The notes under the pieces: generated by a model
The model's input: the letters and a program-made list of their open reading frames with translations, nothing else
The model's database searches: none
What the model was told of the DNA's origin: nothing
Shown here: in pieces, positions 950 through 25,255 of the stretch
How positions within the stretch are numbered: the first letter of the stretch is position 1
How the letters are laid out: each line of letters begins with the position of its first letter
Program-made: the position numbers and the translations under genes
Virus record (IMG/VR): IMGVR_UViG_3300018426_000141
Span: 1 to 25,442 of that record
DNA: 25,442 nucleotides
Strand: one strand, 5' to 3'
Origin: a virus

Positions 950-1195
950 TTATTCCAAAATTCCTTGATTTTTTAATTTTTCTACTTGTTTGAGCCACCG
1001 CTTGCGGGCTTGCGCCTTTTCACGCTTGCGTTTTAAACTGGGCTTTTCATAGTATTCATGTTTGCGCATGTCTTTGACCATGCCTTCATTGTTCATCATT
1101 TTTTTGAGTTTGCGCATTGCACGACCTACATCGTTGTTGCGTACCTCTACATAAAGACCCTGTTTGTCATGCTCTGGTTTGAAGTTCCTGTTCAT
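950..1195 (-). CDS. rpsU: Ribosomal protein bS21, phage-encoded
   Basis: An 81-residue basic protein with the bS21 core: a VEVRNND strand near residues 16-22, the helix GRAMRKLKKMMNNEG, then RKHEYYEKPSLKRKREKAQA and a Lys/Arg-rich tail. Length and order match bacterial bS21 (about 70 aa). bS21 sits on the 30S platform beside the 3' end of 16S rRNA, near the anti-Shine-Dalgarno, and aids mRNA engagement. Phage bS21 homologues are known from marine and other phages. The start is the ATG at 1195, which overlaps the IF3 stop as ATGA and has GAGGA 5 nt upstream; an in-frame ATG at 1255 would run deep into IF3. Translational coupling to IF3 implies joint production. The replacement of host bS21 on ribosomes is inferred. 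Confidence 0.93.
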   Translation of the reverse strand: MNRNFKPEHDKQGLYVEVRNNDVGRAMRKLKKMMNNEGMVKDMRKHEYYEKPSLKRKREKAQARKRWLKQVEKLKNQGILE

Positions 1196-1719
1196 TCTTT
1201 CCTCGTGAGTATTCCAATTAGCCTGTTGCCATTCAGACTTGGTTTGGTATCCCAATCTGTATTGTCAATACAATCAACTATACGCTCCATGATACCAAAC
1301 CCTTGTTGTTTGTTGGCATTTTCTCTACCTCTGTATCTAATAACACACTTTACTTTGTTGCCTTTGCTTAAAAACTTTTCAATGTTTTTGATCTTGGTTT
1401 CAAAATCGTGTTGGTCGATACCTAGTCTAAATTGCATCTCTTTGATAACAATTTTATTTTCTCTTTGACGCTTGGCTGCTTCTTTTTCCTTGCGTTTTTG
1501 TTCGTAGAAATATTTATTAGCATCCAATAGTTTTGCCACAGGAGGATCACTTTTTTCGCTGATCACCACTAGATCTGTGTTCTGTTGTTTGGCTATGTTC
1601 AATGCTTGTTGCAAGCTCATTACACCAAACTGTTCTTGATCGCCTACTACTCTCAGTGTGGAGTATTTGATGTTTTCGTTTATGGGTTGTTTTGGAGCAG
1701 GTTTTTGAAACTTACGCAT
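1192..1719 (-). CDS. infC: Translation initiation factor IF3, phage-encoded
   Basis: At 175 aa this is a full-length IF3 with both domains. The N-domain has PINENIKYSTLRVVGD (12-27), LQQALNIA and DLVVISEKSDPPVAKLLD (49-66). A Lys/Arg/Glu-rich linker helix follows (73-90), then the C-domain with IKEMQFRLGIDQHDFETK (92-109), IEKFLSKGNKVKCVIRYRGRE and the GIMERI segment. In bacteria IF3 binds the 30S platform, keeps 50S away, and proofreads the initiator tRNA and start codon, rejecting non-AUG starts and leaderless mRNAs. It is TAATG-coupled to the gene upstream and ATGA-coupled to bS21 downstream. All domains look intact, so I infer it is functional. An IF3 in a phage is unusual. Confidence 0.95.
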   Translation of the reverse strand: MRKFQKPAPKQPINENIKYSTLRVVGDQEQFGVMSLQQALNIAKQQNTDLVVISEKSDPPVAKLLDANKYFYEQKRKEKEAAKRQRENKIVIKEMQFRLGIDQHDFETKIKNIEKFLSKGNKVKCVIRYRGRENANKQQGFGIMERIVDCIDNTDWDTKPSLNGNRLIGILTRKE

Positions 1720-4145: not shown

Positions 4146-4493
4146 TTAGTCTCCAAACTTTTCAGCATAACCTTCGTCGATCAACTGTTGATTTATATCG
4201 ACTTTGCTGCCTGTGCTGTTTAAAGTAAACACTTTTCCCATGGTGCGTCCAGCTTTGCCTCTTTTGTTCATGATTGTTTCACAAATAAATTCTTGTCCTA
4301 GTAATTCTGCTAATTTGTTTTTACTGGCAATTGCGTTGTTTCTTGCTGTTTCATCATTACTTCGAATATCTGCTACGTTTACACCGTACAGCTTTATTCT
4401 TTGTCTTATGGTGACATTGAAACCCAAGTCGATTTCTGCATCAACTGTATTTCCATCTATCACTCTTATTGTTGTGCATTGATACGTGTACAT
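4146..4493 (-). CDS. Staphylococcal-nuclease-like (SNase) protein with altered active site
   Basis: 115 aa, the core of an SNase fold: VIDGNTVDAEIDLGF (11-25), QRIKLYGVNVADIRS (31-45), a helix AIASKNKLAELLG, GKAGRTMGKVF (about 79-89) and a closing helix INQQLIDEGYAEKF. Thermonucleases cut DNA and RNA using a Ca2+-binding Asp, Arg35, Glu43 and Arg87 (S. aureus numbering). Here the DGDT aspartate is Asn15, the Arg35 equivalent is Lys34 and the Glu43 position is Asp42, while the Arg87 equivalent is retained. It may therefore be weak, altered in specificity or a binding-only protein. There is no signal peptide. AAGGA lies about 8 nt before ATG. It is the first gene of the operon that ends with IF3 and bS21. 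Confidence 0.85.
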   Translation of the reverse strand: MYTYQCTTIRVIDGNTVDAEIDLGFNVTIRQRIKLYGVNVADIRSNDETARNNAIASKNKLAELLGQEFICETIMNKRGKAGRTMGKVFTLNSTGSKVDINQQLIDEGYAEKFGD

Positions 4494-4515: not shown

Positions 4516-5202
4516 CTATTTAGCGGATTTTGCTTGTGCTAGCCATTGTTTTGCTTGTGGCATACGTGGGGGTGTATCTAAAAATCTGTGTAAATCTTTT
4601 TCAACTTCACGGAAGTTTGCCGCACGTTCTGGATCTTCTAAGCCGCCGCTGTTGTCTACTACAATAAAGTTGCCAGTACCAAAAACCTGTTGGAATGCCA
4701 TGATGTTTTGCTGTACAGCATTCCACATTTTTTCAACTTCTTTTGGATCTAAACTTCTAGGACGTTGTTGATTGCGTTGTTGTGCAACATCTAAGCTGGT
4801 GTTAACAAAGATCATCATTGTTTCATAGCCTAGGCTACGCAATGCTTCACTGGCACGTTTAATCTTGGTCACATCTTTGCCTGTACCGTCGATTACCAAA
4901 CCAAGGCGTCCGTCAATATGGCTGGCTTGTTTGCGCTGTGTAATTGCTTTGGCTTTGTTGCGAATCTCTTGTCCTTGTGGACTAAAGATTGTTTCAGGAT
5001 CAAGCGGCAAATTTTCTTTGCCCATCATGTATTCATAAATGTCGTCACTGTTAATCGTGCGAAGACCGGTGCCCTTGAGTAGTTTTCCAGACACAAAGGA
5101 CTTTCCACTACCAGGACCACCAGCCATGAATACTGCTTTAAAAATGTGAGGGTCATTTGGACCCTCACTCAAAGTTGATGATATTATTTCATTTACTAGC
5201 AT
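4516..5202 (-). CDS. P-loop kinase, zeta-toxin/AAA_33-like, with a capsid-targeting-like N-terminus
   Basis: 228 aa. A beta strand (FKAVFMA) leads into Walker A GGPGSGKS (28-35). INSDDIYEYMM follows, then a LVIDGTGKD strand resembling Walker B, and RNQQRPRS as a likely lid arginine segment. This is the layout of zeta-toxin-type and polynucleotide-kinase-type small-molecule or nucleic acid kinases; the substrate cannot be read. The N-terminal extension ends in LSE at 11-13 before Gly, resembling a T4 prohead protease site. The ATG has no Shine-Dalgarno; instead a late box (CATAAATA, 5208-5215) lies exactly 5 nt upstream, predicting a leaderless transcript. The first in-frame ATG downstream would remove the beta strand before Walker A. 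Confidence 0.85.
   Translation of the reverse strand: MLVNEIISSTLSEGPNDPHIFKAVFMAGGPGSGKSFVSGKLLKGTGLRTINSDDIYEYMMGKENLPLDPETIFSPQGQEIRNKAKAITQRKQASHIDGRLGLVIDGTGKDVTKIKRASEALRSLGYETMMIFVNTSLDVAQQRNQQRPRSLDPKEVEKMWNAVQQNIMAFQQVFGTGNFIVVDNSGGLEDPERAANFREVEKDLHRFLDTPPRMPQAKQWLAQAKSAK
4517..4524 (-). promoter_or_regulatory. Possible late promoter box GCTAAATA
   Basis: Two mismatches to TATAAATA. It overlaps the stop of the kinase gene, with an expected start near 4511 and an 18-nt leader containing the AAGGA of the SNase-like gene. If used, it would drive the operon that ends in IF3 and bS21. Confidence 0.35.
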
Positions 5203-5226: not shown

Positions 5227-5724
5227 CTATTCCCATCGGTAAAAAATGTGTACACCGATGCGTCCTACAAGCTGTAAATCACGAGCCCATTCAGGTCCGA
5301 CATAGTGAGCATGATAGTGAGTTGAACCTTCAGTAAGTCCGCGGCCATCGTTGTGTACAATCATCATATATGCAATTTGCTGTGCATCAACCCAAGCATC
5401 TAGATCTCGTGGCCAATCGCTCTTGCCATCACAGTACCAACTGAATTGGCATGCATTTCGAATCATACTGCCATCAGCATGTCGACGTCCTTGATGCACC
5501 ACTTCACAAATACTGTCAGGATAGCGTGTATCCTGCACACGATTTAGCACTACATCTGCAACTGCAATGCGGTCTGCTCGATTGCTACCTCGTGCTTCAT
5601 AATAAACATTCTGTGCTAGGCACCATGCTTCAGGTTCGTTTTCTGCTGTGTACAACCCGTGTGCATTTGCATTTGCCACTGTTGCTGAAACCAGCATCAT
5701 AAATGCCGCTACGTAAATTTTCAT
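5227..5724 (-). CDS. Secreted cell wall hydrolase, SleB/Hydrolase_2 type
   Basis: 165 aa from the ATG at 5724, which has GAGGTGA about 7 nt upstream; a GTG at 5736 in frame is a weaker start. An Sec-type signal peptide (MKIYVAAFMMLVSATVANANA) ends near residue 21. The mature part has the SleB signature NVYYEARGS (39-47, Glu43 the probable catalytic acid), AVADVVLNRVQD, YPDSICEVV and ACQFSWYCDG (91-100), ending with FYRWE. SleB enzymes are lytic transglycosylase-like peptidoglycan hydrolases. With a signal peptide it would reach the periplasm without a holin, so it is a good candidate for the lysis enzyme. It has its own late-type box at 5746-5753. Confidence 0.93.
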   Translation of the reverse strand: MKIYVAAFMMLVSATVANANAHGLYTAENEPEAWCLAQNVYYEARGSNRADRIAVADVVLNRVQDTRYPDSICEVVHQGRRHADGSMIRNACQFSWYCDGKSDWPRDLDAWVDAQQIAYMMIVHNDGRGLTEGSTHYHAHYVGPEWARDLQLVGRIGVHIFYRWE

Positions 5725-5745
5725 GTCTACTCTCACCTCTGTGTA

Positions 5746-16099: not shown

Positions 16100-16107
16100 T
16101 ATTTATG
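16100..16107 (-). promoter_or_regulatory. T4-type late promoter box CATAAATA
   Basis: One mismatch to the T4 box. The spacer to ATG is 18 nt and the expected leader of 13 nt includes AGGAG. Here, unlike four other late genes, the leader has room for a Shine-Dalgarno. Confidence 0.6.
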
Positions 16108-16777
16108 ACAGGTTGTAGAACTCTGCGACTCTCTGAGCCCATTTTTCTGTCCACATTTCAAATTCTTCTGGTCCTACTTCAAACAATTGCCATTGTAAAT
16201 CTCTGCTACACATAAAGATAGCAGCCCGTTCTATTTTAGTGCCAAACACTTCATTGTGTGCCATGCCATAAGCTGCGGCTTGCATAAAGTAGTCGTCAAT
16301 CCATTCACGCTTCTTGGGCTTGTTGGTTTGTTTAAAGTCCATGATGTGTGGTTCGCCTTTGTATACTCCTACTAGATCTGTAGTACCTGCATACAATTGT
16401 GGATAGCAAAGATTCACTTCGCTACCCCACACTTCATCTAAGTCATCTTCGATGTTTTGCTTTACTGTGTCAGCCATCATTTTGGCTTGCAGTATAGTTT
16501 CACCTGTGTATTCTTCGTTCTTTACCCAATGCTCCAGTATGTTGTGCATGATAGTGCCAACATTGGCAGCTTCGGTGACTATTTTTTGTGCTTGTTCTTC
16601 CCCTACACGTTTCTTCCAGTTAGCCAGTGCTTCTCTTTTTTCTTTAGGCTTGGTCTTGTCCAAAATAGTGGTGACGCTGGGCACAGGATCACCATAGGGA
16701 TTTTCGTACAAACGTTTGCCGTTTACACTTTTGCGTTTGAATTCTTTATACGGGTAGGGGGAAGTGATGTTTAACAT
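16103..16777 (-). CDS. PD-(D/E)XK exonuclease, RecB/Cas4-like
   Basis: 224 aa from ATG 16777. Motifs in order: VGTIMHNILEHW (73-84, with His78), Glu120 in WGSEVNL, GTTDLVGVY (131-139, with Asp134), IMDFKQT (145-151, with Asp147 and Lys149) and QAAAYG (166-171). These are the active-site elements of RecB-family nucleases, which degrade or trim DNA from ends with Mg2+ and are used in phage recombination or host DNA breakdown. An upstream in-frame ATG (16858) lies inside the preceding gene and past its promoter; I reject it. A sigma70-like promoter at 16784-16813 places the likely transcript start at or next to the ATG at 16777, and no Shine-Dalgarno is visible. Confidence 0.88.
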   Translation of the reverse strand: MLNITSPYPYKEFKRKSVNGKRLYENPYGDPVPSVTTILDKTKPKEKREALANWKKRVGEEQAQKIVTEAANVGTIMHNILEHWVKNEEYTGETILQAKMMADTVKQNIEDDLDEVWGSEVNLCYPQLYAGTTDLVGVYKGEPHIMDFKQTNKPKKREWIDDYFMQAAAYGMAHNEVFGTKIERAAIFMCSRDLQWQLFEVGPEEFEMWTEKWAQRVAEFYNLS

Positions 16778-16783
16778 TTTATT

Positions 16784-16813
16784 ACTATAGCATACCCGTG
16801 TATTACTTGTCAA
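16784..16813 (-). promoter_or_regulatory. Sigma70-like promoter TTGACA-18-TATAGT
   Basis: TTGACA at 16813-16808, TATAGT at 16789-16784. The usual start 6-8 nt past the -10 falls at about 16777, the nuclease start codon itself, so its early transcript may be leaderless. Confidence 0.65.
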
Positions 16814-17237
16814 GAATATAAGGCGCAAATTGTTCTGGATTTTTTTGCACATGGTCACGTAGGTTAAGTGCAGGAAGTGGAAACTCCGGTGTGTTGTTGT
16901 AGTAAACTATATCTGAATCTTCTTCCCATGGATCCTCATCATAACACTGCCAAATCTCTCCCCAAGTAAACCAAAATCCGGTACACACAAGTTCAATTTT
17001 ATTGATAGGAACATCGATTCCGTAATCCTGTTTCCAATGTTTCCGACAATCACGTAGTACATTTATTGTGCGAGCTGGATGAGCACTAGACGAAAATCCC
17101 CAAGGAACACTGTACTCTTTTGGTGCATAGCAATCGTAGAACAATTCCGGATCCTCATTCGGATAGCGAGCAATAAGGTCAAATTGTTCCTTGGGTGTGA
17201 GTGAAATTTTCTGTGAAATTGGCATTACTACAGGCAT
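16803..17237 (-). CDS. Unknown protein, 144 aa
   Basis: Contains SLTPKEQFDLIARYPNEDPE, LFYDCYAPKEYSVPWGFSS, HPARTINVLRDCRKHWKQDY and GFWFTWGEIWQCYDEDPWEE. It is rich in aromatic residues and Asp/Glu, with a helix-turn-like middle. No domain recognised. I place the start at 17237 rather than two codons earlier because AAAAGGAG is then 7 nt away. Transcription would come from the sigma70-like promoter at 17269-17297, whose leader is nearly identical to that of the next gene upstream. Early expression is likely. Confidence 0.78.
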   Translation of the reverse strand: MPVVMPISQKISLTPKEQFDLIARYPNEDPELFYDCYAPKEYSVPWGFSSSAHPARTINVLRDCRKHWKQDYGIDVPINKIELVCTGFWFTWGEIWQCYDEDPWEEDSDIVYYNNTPEFPLPALNLRDHVQKNPEQFAPYILDK

Positions 17238-21709: not shown

Positions 21710-22133
21710 GAATCGACGGGTTAATTATAAAGTATAAGTTAATACTATTGGGGTCTACAGTTTCAAAACTTTTGGTTTTTATCTCACAGGTTTCTTCCAA
21801 TTTGGTTAGTATAGCAATACCATTGCAGTCATAAATCAAATTATGAATAGGATTGTTGTTTTTGTTGTAAACTTCACCATGCTCACTACTAAAGTCTAAT
21901 CTCCATACTGTATGTAGTCCTTGATACTGTTTTCCAAAGCCATAATCAGCTACATCTTGTGTCATGTAAGTGGATATCTTTGGTTCCAAGGGCTGACTGC
22001 GCAAGCTGATACACTGTAGCAGTGTGTTTAAATTCTGTTGCTGATAGTATTGTGTGCTGTCAATATTGCTGCTTTTGGTTTCGCCGCTTTGTGTGATGTC
22101 TACCAGTGTGTATGCTGTGTAGTTTTGTGTCAT
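21705..22133 (-). CDS. Unknown protein, 142 aa
   Basis: Contains YTAYTLVDITQSGETKSSNI, QQQNLNTLLQCISLRSQPLE, FGKQYQGLHTVWRLDFSSEH and DPNSINLYFIINPSIH at the end. A beta-rich, neutral protein without signal peptide or membrane segment. No family with a known function. The phrasing of VDITQSG and a hydrophobic C-terminus is similar, from memory, to hypothetical proteins of marine T4-like phages. ATGA overlap with the gene before shows coupling. Confidence 0.8.
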   Translation of the reverse strand: MTQNYTAYTLVDITQSGETKSSNIDSTQYYQQQNLNTLLQCISLRSQPLEPKISTYMTQDVADYGFGKQYQGLHTVWRLDFSSEHGEVYNKNNNPIHNLIYDCNGIAILTKLEETCEIKTKSFETVDPNSINLYFIINPSIH

Positions 22134-22918
22134 ACTAGGCTACGTCCAAAAGCTCTACCCAATTGAAAACTTCCAACAGTTGCAGCACCCAGTGCGGCAG
22201 CTTTGGCTAGTGTATCAACTCCTCTGGCTTTTGGTTGTTCAGCATTGTGAGCATTGCGTATTTCCAGTCCTTGTGATCTAGCCATGTCTCTGATGAAACT
22301 GTACAGTTCACTGCGCAAGGCTTTGGTTCTGAAAAATTGCAGCATGCGAGTAATCAACAGTTGTTTTTGCATACTGTTGAGTTTTTTCCAATCTTGTGCC
22401 AGTCTGCGCACACTGCGATAGTTTGAATTTTGAATATCCAATCCTCGCTCCAGTGTTAGGAAAAATGTTTGTGGACTGACAATTGGTCTACCAAATGCAA
22501 TTTGCTGCAAGAACTGTCTAATCTTCATTTCTGGCAAATTGATTTTGGCTTGTTGTACTTGATCTTTGTCTGTAGCAGTACTGGTACCTTGTTTGAGGCT
22601 GTTGAGTGCCATGTATAGATCAGTACCGCTTTGTCTATAGTTATTGAAATTGCCGTACATCATGGTACGCTTGGCATAGCCTTGTGCTGCTGGAGCAAAG
22701 TCATATTCTTGACTTAGGATATACAGTGCCATCATGTTCATAAATGCAAAGTCAGCCATGTCTCTGTTGCTGGTTCCCTCAACACGATTTTTGGTTCTAA
22801 ACATTTTGCTTTCAGTGATCTCAGTTCCAATAAAACCAAGATTCAGACCTTTTTTGTCCTCGGTCATGCTGTGACCTCCGTACATTTCTGCGTATTGTTT
22901 TGCTGTATACTTTTCCAT
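22130..22918 (-). CDS. Unknown helical protein, 262 aa
   Basis: Starts MEKYTAKQYAEMYGGHSMTE, with DMADFAFMNMMALYILSQEY, YRQSGTDLYMALNSLKQGTS, KLNSMQKQLLITRMLQFFRT and a Gly/Ala-rich C-terminus (LAKAAALGAATVGSFQLGRA) that may insert into or lie on a membrane. No known domain. An in-frame ATG at 23092 would overlap the ligase-like gene by over 150 nt, and its extra 58 residues look unlike the rest, so I use 22918. There the late box GGTAAATA ends exactly 5 nt before ATG, which supports this start. Confidence 0.8.
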   Translation of the reverse strand: MEKYTAKQYAEMYGGHSMTEDKKGLNLGFIGTEITESKMFRTKNRVEGTSNRDMADFAFMNMMALYILSQEYDFAPAAQGYAKRTMMYGNFNNYRQSGTDLYMALNSLKQGTSTATDKDQVQQAKINLPEMKIRQFLQQIAFGRPIVSPQTFFLTLERGLDIQNSNYRSVRRLAQDWKKLNSMQKQLLITRMLQFFRTKALRSELYSFIRDMARSQGLEIRNAHNAEQPKARGVDTLAKAAALGAATVGSFQLGRAFGRSLV

Positions 22919-22931: not shown

Positions 22932-24005
22932 TTAGTTGGGTGTCCAGCGATGACGTGGCACCAATTTGATTTTGTCTCTGGTGGCAACGTATCCTTCGCC
23001 ACCTTGTTCACCTTTGGTTGTTGCTTTAACATCAGCACCGGCACTGTCCAATTGATCAATGATGTCGTTTTTGGCTGTTTGTATTTTAACAATCAATTCC
23101 AATATAGCATTCAATCCTTGTGTGTCACTGGCCATCAGTTTGGCTTGCTGTCCTTGACTGACTTTGCTTTGCTTGAGCCAATCAAAGAAACCCGATTGTA
23201 GTTGAGCCAACTTGCCCATTTTGGTCATTTGGTTAACATAGTTGTACAGTATTGCACTTTTGTTGCTGAGACCTTTTTCAGGTGCTAGCCAAGCATCTAT
23301 TTTTTGTGCATTTGCATTTGCAGTGTTGACAATGTCCTGCACTACACCTGTGTCAACTTTGGGTTGATGTGTCACATAAGTTTGACCTAATACAACCAAG
23401 TCATTGCTGTTCAAACTTTTTGTGTCTTTGATTGGAGTTCCTTGCTTGTCTCCAAATGCATCGTGATAGGTGTGTACTACTACACCCACTTTACTGCCCG
23501 CTATACGCTTGCCTAGCGGGCTGTTAGGGTCAACTGTGTATGTGACTTTGTTGGGTGTAAACTGTAGCCCTGCTGATGTACTAGCAACAGGTTTGCGTGG
23601 TGTGTACAGCAAATCTCCATACACATATCCTCGCATGTCTGCTGGTGTGTTGGCTTCTAGTATGTCAAACACACCTGCCATTTCACCTGCGAAATCTTTG
23701 CGCCACTCTTCGCCTTGCCCCGTGTTCATAATAAAATCTGCAAGTGCTCCACTGCTGGTTGTTTTATTTTTGCCCCAACCATTTTTGCCTGTCATTACAA
23801 ATGTACCGTCTGGCTCTCTGCCCCAGAATATTGTGGGGTTACCATCCCATTTGATGCTGACATCTTTTGAATCTTGTCCCAGTCTTTGCAGTATACTTGC
23901 CGCTTGGAGTGCGCCTTTGCTGCCGTCAAAACTAACAAGGTCTTCAAGATGGTTATAATCTCTACCTTTTTGTGCAGCTTCAGTTAAAAAATGACGGGCT
24001 CTCAT
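22932..24005 (-). CDS. KxDG nucleotidyltransferase, ATP-dependent RNA/DNA-ligase-like, capsid-targeting-like N-terminus
   Basis: 357 aa. Motif I KWDG at 52-55 (IKWDGNPTIFWG, Lys52 the likely adenylated residue), a FVMTGKNGWGK loop, motif III-like YVYGDLLYT (128-135), motif IV EGYV at 337-340 and motif V KIKLV at 345-349. These are the elements of covalent nucleotidyltransferases: ligases and capping enzymes. The wide gap between III and IV holds an extra helical insert of about 190 residues. Position 10 (MRARHFLTEA) has the LTE-A form of T4 capsid-targeting peptides. The ATG overlaps the nucleotidyltransferase stop as TAATG. The substrate is unknown; the assignment rests on motifs read by eye. 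Confidence 0.82.
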   Translation of the reverse strand: MRARHFLTEAAQKGRDYNHLEDLVSFDGSKGALQAASILQRLGQDSKDVSIKWDGNPTIFWGREPDGTFVMTGKNGWGKNKTTSSGALADFIMNTGQGEEWRKDFAGEMAGVFDILEANTPADMRGYVYGDLLYTPRKPVASTSAGLQFTPNKVTYTVDPNSPLGKRIAGSKVGVVVHTYHDAFGDKQGTPIKDTKSLNSNDLVVLGQTYVTHQPKVDTGVVQDIVNTANANAQKIDAWLAPEKGLSNKSAILYNYVNQMTKMGKLAQLQSGFFDWLKQSKVSQGQQAKLMASDTQGLNAILELIVKIQTAKNDIIDQLDSAGADVKATTKGEQGGEGYVATRDKIKLVPRHRWTPN

Positions 24006-24781
24006 TAGTCAAGTTCTTTCCAATTTGGATCGTTGCGAAGATCAGCAAGTAGTGCATCACCTGCTTCTTTGCCCAACGCTGCCAGTATCTGTTCAACGCT
24101 GCCAATATCTTTTCCTGTGGCATTTGGGCCTAGTAGTGTACGTGCTACTTCGTCAATGTTATTGGTAATAAGATCAGCTTTCTTACCGTTAGCATCTCTG
24201 CTGAACAATCCTTGGTAAGGACTCCACAGCATGTTTTTGCTTTTAGCAATGTTTGCTAGTGCGATTTGTTTGTTCACACCTTTCCATTTACTGCCAGCTG
24301 GTATGCTGTGTGTATGGAATTTTGCTGCATTTTCTGCATTGGGTACACCCATGATATCCACTTGATGTGTGTGATCACCCATTGGTTCTTCCACATGCAC
24401 ACTGGTTCCACTTTGTGCAGTGTTCAGTCCTGCTAGGTCAAACACTTGACGCAGTTTTTGTCTAATAACTTTGTCTGGTTGATCCTGCATGTTGAAGTGT
24501 TGTTTGAGTTGATCCACATCAACAATCATATCCAAGTCTCCGCTGACTTTGCCTGGAGTTGGTGTTGCACCACTGCCAATGGGGATTGCTTTGCTGCTGG
24601 TTTTTGCCAGCACACTATTGATAGTTTTCATGATGTCAGGGATCATCTTGTGATCAAAACTCACACTATTGGGAAATATGTTGCCGCCCTCTTTGAATAG
24701 GCTGCGTCCTCTGATTCTGTCTATGCGGCTACCACGTTTTCTACGTCTTTTAGTCCCGCCCAGTATGTCTGCTATCTTCAA
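24005..24781 (-). CDS. Pol-beta-type nucleotidyltransferase, TTG start
   Basis: 258 aa. After a very basic N-terminus (TKRRRKRGSRIDRIRG), the motif IPIGSGATPTPGKVSGDLDM (67-86) gives the GS...DxD of Pol-beta-fold nucleotidyltransferases, with Asp82 and Asp84 as metal ligands and Asp142 (HQVDIMG) as the third. HTHSIPAGSKWKGVNKQIAL comes later. These enzymes add nucleotides to RNA, proteins or small molecules. The start is TTG at 24781, with GAGGG 10 nt upstream; no ATG fits before the basic N-terminus. It overlaps the gene before by 32 nt and is TAATG-coupled to the ligase-like gene, so the two probably act in one pathway of nucleic acid end repair or modification. Confidence 0.8.
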   Translation of the reverse strand: MKIADILGGTKRRRKRGSRIDRIRGRSLFKEGGNIFPNSVSFDHKMIPDIMKTINSVLAKTSSKAIPIGSGATPTPGKVSGDLDMIVDVDQLKQHFNMQDQPDKVIRQKLRQVFDLAGLNTAQSGTSVHVEEPMGDHTHQVDIMGVPNAENAAKFHTHSIPAGSKWKGVNKQIALANIAKSKNMLWSPYQGLFSRDANGKKADLITNNIDEVARTLLGPNATGKDIGSVEQILAALGKEAGDALLADLRNDPNWKELD

Positions 24782-25013
24782 CTTTACTAATCCCTCTTTG
24801 AAACTTGCGTGGATCTTTGGTACGTATGCTGTTGATCAAACGCTTGTTTAAGTCAGCGGCTGTTTCAACATCAAAACTTTCGTTAATCAAATTGATCAAG
24901 TTTATTGCTGTCACAATCACTTGTTGCGCATTTGATTCCACAATATGCTTTTTGTCACGCTTGGGTGACATAGCATTAATTTCTTCCAATAATGATCTTG
25001 TTTTACGCTTCAT
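24750..25013 (-). CDS. Small conserved phage protein, 87 aa
   Basis: Starts MKRKTRSLLEEINAMSPKRD and continues KKHIVESNAQQVIVTAINLI, NESFDVETAADLNKRLINSI and RTKDPRKFQRGISKVED. All helical and basic. I recall near-identical layouts in marine T4-like cyanophages, always unnamed. It is the first gene of the unit with the nucleotidyltransferase and the ligase-like protein, which suggests a partner or RNA-binding helper. Start 25013 is chosen over an upstream in-frame ATG at 25049 because a late-type box (25022-25029) lies just before it. Confidence 0.82.
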   Translation of the reverse strand: MKRKTRSLLEEINAMSPKRDKKHIVESNAQQVIVTAINLINLINESFDVETAADLNKRLINSIRTKDPRKFQRGISKVEDSRHTGRD

Positions 25014-25029: not shown

Positions 25030-25255
25030 AAATATTGTTGCTGGAGCATTGGTGATCAGCACTTATGGCAGTTGCAGAGGTTTTGATTCTCAACATAGGA
25101 CCCGTTAACAATAAGAGCATATAATCATCAATGGCAATGCAAACACACAGTACAGGCTCAACATAGGCTCATATTAATGACTCATTTATATCAGTGTTTG
25201 TGGTTCAGAATCATATATAGATATAGATAAGGTAAATGACACCTTTGCTTCAGCA
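25030..25255. other. Non-coding gap with direct repeats
   Basis: No ORF with a ribosome binding site was found on either strand. CTCAACATAGG occurs twice (25089-25099 and 25157-25167), the second flanked by two GGCTCA copies. A TATAAATG box (25193-25200) and an A/T-rich tract (near 25212-25230) follow. It may be a regulatory region or a decayed gene. Confidence 0.4.

What the first reader, a model, noticed from the sequence alone, without database searches (positions are those of the whole stretch)
22932..25013. Coupled ligase-like and nucleotidyltransferase pair with a small helical partner
A KxDG ligase-like protein with motifs I, III, IV and V, a Pol-beta-type GS..DxD nucleotidyltransferase and an 87-aa basic protein are translationally coupled. 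The ligase has a long insert between motifs III and IV. This combination suggests an end-joining or end-extension pathway on RNA or DNA, possibly repair of host-cleaved tRNA or labelling of injected DNA ends.
Basis: partly seen in the sequence, partly recalled or inferred. Interest (0 to 1): 0.72.

Follow-up and report, generated by a model that had tools for sequence, protein, structure and literature searches.

The report
Phage polymerase-X and ligase gene pair
A marine phage carries two side-by-side enzymes, one shaped like a gap-filling DNA polymerase and one like a strand-sealing ligase, in a gene cluster also found in giant phages, and together they look like a small uncharacterised nucleic-acid repair kit.

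Summary
P0001 (22932-24005) belongs to Pfam DUF6267. It has invariant ligase motifs (K52xDG, GDLLY, EG, K347), a helical insert of about 110 residues, and a confident model whose 50 listed VIA rows are all RNA or DNA ligases. It has no OB domain and a variant motif V. P0002 (24005-24781) matches no curated family, but its model matches family X DNA polymerases (Pol lambda E 4e-8; Pol beta Z 12.4); D82, D84 and D142 are invariant. The 87-aa gene belongs to a jumbo-phage virion-protein family and is probably a syntenic neighbour.

The NTase recurs near other KxDG ligase-like proteins in jumbo phages (Phosso, Atu_ph07, PA5oct), close to the replicative helicase and among virion genes. DUF6267 recurs in cyanophages beside a HIGH-type nucleotidylyltransferase instead. 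One-ORF fusions occur for both pairings.

Best reading: a gap-filling or end-extending polymerase plus a sealing ligase, more likely on DNA than on tRNA, because Atu_ph07 and Lak-A2 carry a separate RlaP. Ligase plus Pol-beta NTase pairs (RlaP) are already described in jumbo phages; the family X type and the DUF6267 assignment look new. Substrate and activity are untested.

The parts
24750..25013 (-). P3: 87-aa protein of phrog_11854 ('virion structural protein'); 99 aa if started at 25049
   Evidence: E 8.2e-18; 45 phage records
24005..24781 (-). P0002: family X polymerase-like nucleotidyltransferase, 258 aa, TTG start
24530..24544 (-). NTase motif S80-G-D82-L-D84 (two catalytic Asp)
   Evidence: D82 and D84 38/38 and 25/25
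24350..24364 (-). NTase Q140-V-D142-I-M144 (third acid)
   Evidence: D142 38/38 and 25/25
22932..24005 (-). P0001: DUF6267 ligase-like protein, 357 aa
   Evidence: (PF19782 E 6.5e-29)
23841..23852 (-). motif I K52-W-D-G55
   Evidence: K52, D54, G55 73/73
23604..23618 (-). motif III-like G130-D-L-L-Y134
   Evidence: G130 72/73, D131 73/73
23031..23360 (-). helical insert (about residues 216-325) between motifs III/IIIa and IV
   Evidence: secondary structure
22953..22997 (-). motif IV E337-G-x-V340 and variant motif V K347-x-V-x-R351
22130..22918 (-). P4: 262-aa gene of the conserved cluster, homologous to Phosso 448 and Atu_ph07 gp064; function unknown
   Evidence: HMM of Phosso 448 plus Atu gp064 hits it at E 8e-36

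Best explanation
The core is a two-enzyme polynucleotide end-processing module. P0002 is a minimal family X-type polymerase (palm plus thumb) that adds nucleotides to a 3' end or fills a short gap. P0001 (DUF6267) is a minimal covalent-nucleotidyltransferase ligase that forms Lys52-AMP and seals the strand. The preferred substrate is the phage's own DNA (gaps, nicks or ends during replication, or on the incoming genome), since the genes sit beside replication and virion genes. Shown: folds (predicted), motifs, conservation, genomic linkage. Inferred: catalysis, order of steps, DNA as substrate.
For: The NTase model (pLDDT 87.4) matches family X polymerases: all 50 listed Foldseek rows and all 50 listed VIA rows (Z up to 12.4, 183 residues, spanning Pol beta palm and thumb). 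Among viral models, named family X enzymes (Pithovirus E 2.7e-6) rank well above LicD (0.007), a poly(A)-polymerase head (0.039) and a RelA/SpoT protein (0.056). The ligase model (pLDDT 90.5) has only RNA/DNA ligases in its 50 listed VIA rows. Linkage: of 79 new DUF6267 loci, 28 carry the NTase, 36 a HIGH-type NTase, 8 only P3, 7 neither, 0 both; L097 fuses NTase and DUF6267 in one ORF. In Phosso, Atu_ph07 and PA5oct the same NTase family lies near another KxDG ligase-like protein, downstream of the helicase and P3. DNA over tRNA: Atu_ph07 and Lak-A2 have a separate RlaP; Atu_ph07 also has a tRNA nucleotidyltransferase and a tRNA-His guanylyltransferase (PMC6102473, passages); 4 of 5 DUF6267 cyanophages show no PF01068, PF01653 or PF09414 ligase.
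Against: The ligase has no OB domain, its motif V lacks the second lysine, and its best folds are RNA ligases (Z 6.5 against about 5.5 for DNA ligases, within or near a tie; all under Z 8). Foldseek gave no E<=0.001 for it. No sequence search links either protein to a solved ligase or polymerase, and Pfam DNA_pol_B_palm does not hit. Cyanophage DUF6267 pairs with a HIGH-type NTase, which is not expected on DNA ends. The four jumbo phages with the NTase already have a DNA ligase. No Ku in 16 records.
Confidence: 0.5

Rival explanations
1. RNA (tRNA) repair: the NTase restores a lost nucleotide at a cleaved RNA end and DUF6267 seals it, as proposed for RlaP plus RNA ligase in jumbo phages.
For: Best VIA matches of DUF6267 are RNA ligases; RlaP plus ligase pairs are described in jumbo phages (PMC7824862 section 21, read); EG[YF]V to K spacing resembles T4 Rnl1 (recalled).
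Against: The NTase fold is family X-like and none of 38 members hits RlaP in Pfam; Atu_ph07 and Lak-A2 carry RlaP elsewhere; no tRNA gene in the window; position beside helicase and virion genes.
Confidence: 0.25
2. A nucleotidylation pathway not concerned with nucleic-acid ends: either NTase activates a small molecule or protein and the ligase-like enzyme uses its Lys-NMP on the same pathway, so that Pol-X-type and HIGH-type NTases are interchangeable.
For: DUF6267 is near a HIGH-type NTase in 36 of 79 loci and is fused to it in L111, L114 and phrog_455; motif V is unusual.
Against: A full family X palm-thumb match is unusual for a small-molecule NTase; the jumbo-phage ligase-like proteins beside the NTase are a different KxDG family with weak RNA_ligase hits.
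Confidence: 0.15
3. The proteins are mainly virion components whose enzyme folds are retained for packaging or structural roles.
For: PA5oct NTase gp253 is annotated structural protein, ESI-MS/MS; Atu_ph07 gp064-068 lie by number in the virion-protein cluster CDS 31-76; window neighbours hit virion families phrog_14154 and phrog_16215.
Against: Catalytic residues are invariant, which a structural role does not require.
Confidence: 0.1

Closest known systems
RlaP (PF10127) plus RNA ligase pairs of jumbo phages (Iyer et al. 2021, PMC7824862)
   Same: A Pol-beta-superfamily NTase working with a KxDG-type ligase in large phages.
   Different: This NTase matches no RlaP model, coexists with RlaP in Atu_ph07 and Lak-A2 and folds like family X; the ligase is DUF6267, not a recognised Rnl1 or Rnl2.
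African swine fever virus Pol X plus DNA ligase (recalled)
   Same: A small palm-plus-thumb family X polymerase with a viral ligase; virion packaging is recalled for ASFV and hinted at here.
   Different: ASFV ligase has DNA-ligase domains (recalled); DUF6267 lacks an OB fold. ASFV O174L is only a weak structural match (E 0.022).
DUF6267 (PF19782) / phrog_455 of marine cyanophages
   Same: P0001 is a member; same motifs across 73 sequences.
   Different: Cyanophage members pair with a HIGH-type cytidyltransferase instead of the family X-like NTase.
T4 RNA ligases 1 and 2, Naegleria RNA ligase, ATP-dependent DNA ligases
   Same: Nucleotidyltransferase-domain fold, KxDG, EG, motif V lysine.
   Different: Helical insert inside the domain, no C-terminal or OB domain, motif V KxV..R.

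Membership tests
DUF6267 (PF19782) | Pfam gathering score | tested here: met
   101.9 bits against a cut-off of 27; 18 of 18 members of A2 match
Covalent nucleotidyltransferase (ligase/capping) superfamily | Motif I KxDG | tested here: met
   73/73, partly ascertained by the scan pattern
Covalent nucleotidyltransferase (ligase/capping) superfamily | Motif V with two lysines (KxK; recalled definition) | tested here: not met
   K347 73/73 but V349 72/73; R or K at 351
Covalent nucleotidyltransferase (ligase/capping) superfamily | Fold of the nucleotidyltransferase domain | tested here: met
   50 of 50 listed VIA rows are RNA/DNA ligases, Z 5.0-6.5, 152-188 residues; below Z 8, and Foldseek E>0.001
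ATP-dependent DNA ligase | OB domain after motif V; PF01068 | tested here: not met
   the chain ends 10 residues after K347; no PF01068 hit
Rnl1/Rnl2 RNA ligase | Pfam RNA-ligase models such as PF09414 | tested here: not met
   0 of 18 A2 members at E<=1
Family X DNA polymerase | Palm plus thumb fold | tested here: met
   all 50 listed rows of each; Pol beta Z 12.4, rmsd 4.3, 183 residues
Family X DNA polymerase | Three catalytic Asp | tested here: met
   D82, D84, D142 invariant in 38 and 25 sequences; equivalence to Pol beta D190, D192, D256 is inferred, numbers recalled
Family X DNA polymerase | Pfam palm model PF14792 | tested here: not met
   no match in the window or six phage records; in the control genomes the model rang in 3 of 14, none over its cut-off
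Family X DNA polymerase | DNA polymerase activity | not testable with these tools
   needs a primer-extension assay
RlaP (PF10127) | Pfam model | tested here: not met
   0 of 38 A4 members; no match in the window
Bacterial NHEJ (Ku-LigD) | Ku present | tested here: not met
   0 of 16 records, four of them fragments

The most novel reading that the evidence does not exclude
Tailed phages carry a previously unrecognised family X DNA polymerase which, with a minimal ligase (DUF6267 or another KxDG protein), forms a virion-borne repair kit that mends the injected genome, convergent with African swine fever virus; and DUF6267 is the missing DNA ligase of marine T4-like cyanophages that lack gp30.
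Probability: 0.2. Interest if true: 0.85.

Novelty: new variant of a known kind. Interest (0 to 1): 0.6.

Why it matters
DUF6267 is widespread in marine phages and has no assigned function. Reading it as a ligase-type enzyme makes it testable and could explain how cyanophages without a recognisable ligase seal their DNA. A family X polymerase would be unusual for phages: a 2022 review of phage DNA polymerases lists only African swine fever virus under viruses for family X (PMC8775771, passages). Pairing of one ligase family with two unrelated nucleotidyltransferases, each fused to it at least once, is a natural experiment on what the pathway does.

Tried and rejected
Sequence-only routes gave little. 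Profiles of both proteins against PDB sequences found no credible relative (the hits are helical chance matches, for example to spike and ribosomal proteins). tblastn of the NTase found nothing in 50,697 phage records, even at E<=10. The genome-contig scan confirmed no relative. The Phosso gene directly after P3 (445) was first taken for the NTase and rejected; 446 and 447 are the pair. DUF6267 against the Phosso/Atu/PA5oct ligase-like family: HMM no hit, profile-profile probability 54, so common descent there is not shown. RlaP, CCA-adding and Ku-based NHEJ were considered and set aside. NCBIfam and PADLOC gave no informative hit. Papers: 'DUF6267' 0 papers; family X plus jumbo phage searches returned one paper each, which from its listing is not on this subject; 'family x dna polymerase' with phage, ligase and virion 0. 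The library is open-access PMC only, so absence there is weak.

Weaknesses of my own counts: one search kept the best 80 of 425 relatives, so partner counts are not a census; many loci are near-copies (23 distinct full-length DUF6267 and 26 distinct NTases of the window type). The tree is the quick one, with long-branch warnings. In the 8 P3-only loci no NTase was found; of the 7 loci with neither partner several end within or just after the gene. One search's P4 profile included a window sequence read one base out of frame; one search repeats it without that sequence, and only one search is used for P4.

Full report
What is in the sequence. Three minus-strand ORFs lie at 24750-25013 (P3, 87 aa; 99 aa from an upstream ATG), 24005-24781 (P0002, 258 aa, TTG start) and 22932-24005 (P0001, 357 aa). 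The last two overlap as TAATG and the first two by 32 nt. A fourth gene, P4 (22130-22918, 262 aa), follows and belongs to the same conserved cluster. The window is a 25,442-base virus record.

Ligase-like protein. P0001 is Pfam DUF6267 (E 6.5e-29). Across 73 homologues K52, D54, G55, P57, D131, P151, Y156, E337, G338 and K347 are invariant; K52-P57 and E337-G338 are partly ascertained by the scan patterns. V349 stands where a second lysine is usual (recalled). The AlphaFold2 model has pLDDT 90.5; residues 219-321 form six helices inserted between motifs III/IIIa and IV, and the chain ends 10 residues after K347, so there is no OB domain. Foldseek ranks ligases first but with no E below 0.001; in VIA-align all 50 listed rows are RNA or DNA ligases, Z 5.0-6.5. 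The score alone is modest; the uniformity of the list together with the motifs carries the assignment.

Nucleotidyltransferase. P0002 and 37 homologues match nothing informative in Pfam, nor does P0002 in PHROGs or NCBIfam. D82, D84 and D142 are invariant in 38 and in a second set of 25 that reaches further. The model (pLDDT 87.4) matches DNA polymerase lambda (E 4.3e-8) and DNA polymerase beta (Z 12.4, 183 residues), covering palm and thumb. All 50 listed rows in both lists are family X. In the viral library the nearest are uncharacterised phage proteins, then family X enzymes of giant viruses (for example Pithovirus, 2.7e-6); a LicD protein (0.007), ASFV O174L (0.022), a poly(A)-polymerase head (0.039) and a RelA/SpoT protein (0.056) rank lower. 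The fold is therefore well supported; membership by sequence model is not.

Conservation of the cluster. The trio is together in 52 of 54 IMG/VR loci fetched with P0002, the other two being cut. An independent fetch with DUF6267 gave 79 new loci: 28 with the NTase, 36 with a HIGH-type cytidyltransferase, 8 with P3 only, 7 with neither, none with both. On a quick tree of 73 DUF6267 sequences the two partners fall on opposite sides of one branch. L097 is one 660-residue open frame holding NTase and DUF6267; L111 and L114 are single open frames holding DUF6267 and the HIGH-type NTase, and phrog_455 itself spans both.

Jumbo phages. P3 relatives occur in 45 phage records, many of them jumbo phages, next to or one gene from the replicative helicase in the four read. 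In Sinorhizobium phage Phosso and Agrobacterium phage Atu_ph07 the order is helicase, one gene, P3, one gene, KxDG ligase-like protein, NTase, P4 homologue; in PA5oct the ligase-like gene gp256 and the NTase gp253 have two genes between them. In the window the NTase precedes the ligase. A profile of the 38 NTases hits the Phosso, Atu_ph07, Lak-A2 and PA5oct proteins at E 8e-19 to 1e-11, and a profile of Phosso and Atu_ph07 genes hits window P4 at 8e-36. The ligase-like proteins there are not detectably DUF6267 by HMM, only weakly by profile comparison (probability 54).

DNA or RNA. Iyer et al. 2021 (PMC7824862; passages and section 21 read) describe RlaP NTases acting with RNA ligases in jumbo phages. 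Atu_ph07 and Lak-A2 carry an RlaP elsewhere in the genome as well as this NTase, and Atu_ph07 has a tRNA nucleotidyltransferase and a tRNA-His guanylyltransferase (PMC6102473, passages), so this NTase probably has another job. Of five DUF6267 cyanophages, four have no PF01068, PF01653 or PF09414 match and S-CRM01 has one PF01068 match; Petrov et al. (PMC2993671, one passage) list gp30 ligase in a group many of whose genes are absent in one or more marine cyanophages. Against DNA: RNA ligases are the top folds, there is no OB domain, and the four jumbo phages with the NTase already have a DNA ligase.

Virion link. PA5oct gp253 is annotated structural protein by ESI-MS/MS. Atu_ph07 gp064-068 fall by number in CDS 31-76, a cluster in which 29 virion proteins were found (PMC6102473 section 29); whether these individual proteins were seen could not be checked. 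Two window neighbours hit virion families. This supports, without proving, packaging.

Verdict. The pair is a real, conserved enzyme module. I put about 0.5 on gap filling or end extension plus sealing with DNA as the preferred substrate, 0.25 on RNA repair, and the rest on other nucleotidylation or structural roles. The HIGH-type partner in cyanophages is the observation that no explanation here fully accounts for.

Noticed in passing
window 1192-1719 (-): Full translation initiation factor IF-3 gene (IF3_N and IF3_C) in a phage.
   Followed up: no
window 4516-5202 (-): Zeta-toxin/AAA_33-like kinase; nearby an SNase-like protein (4146-4493) and a cell wall hydrolase (5227-5736).
   Followed up: no
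L111, L114, phrog_455: DUF6267 fused to a HIGH-type cytidyltransferase in cyanophage-type loci.
   Followed up: partly
L096 1898-5110: DUF6267 at the end of a 1071-residue open frame (stop to stop) with a long, partly low-complexity N-terminal part; no NTase found.
   Followed up: no
L156 3740-4633 (Phosso 118239-119132): Second, divergent copy of the NTase family in Phosso, without a ligase nearby by annotation.
   Followed up: partly
L155 4276-5451 (Vibrio phage 2.275.O): DUF6267 in a jumbo phage far from P3 and with no NTase of this family found in the genome.
   Followed up: partly
BFVD A0A6J5T1K8 (718 aa), A0A6J5TD12 (1096 aa): Long uncultured-phage proteins containing this NTase fold, the second named ParB/Sulfiredoxin: possible further fusions.
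   Followed up: no
window 16103-16858 (-): Exonuclease-like protein (phrog_298) in the same gene run.
   Followed up: no
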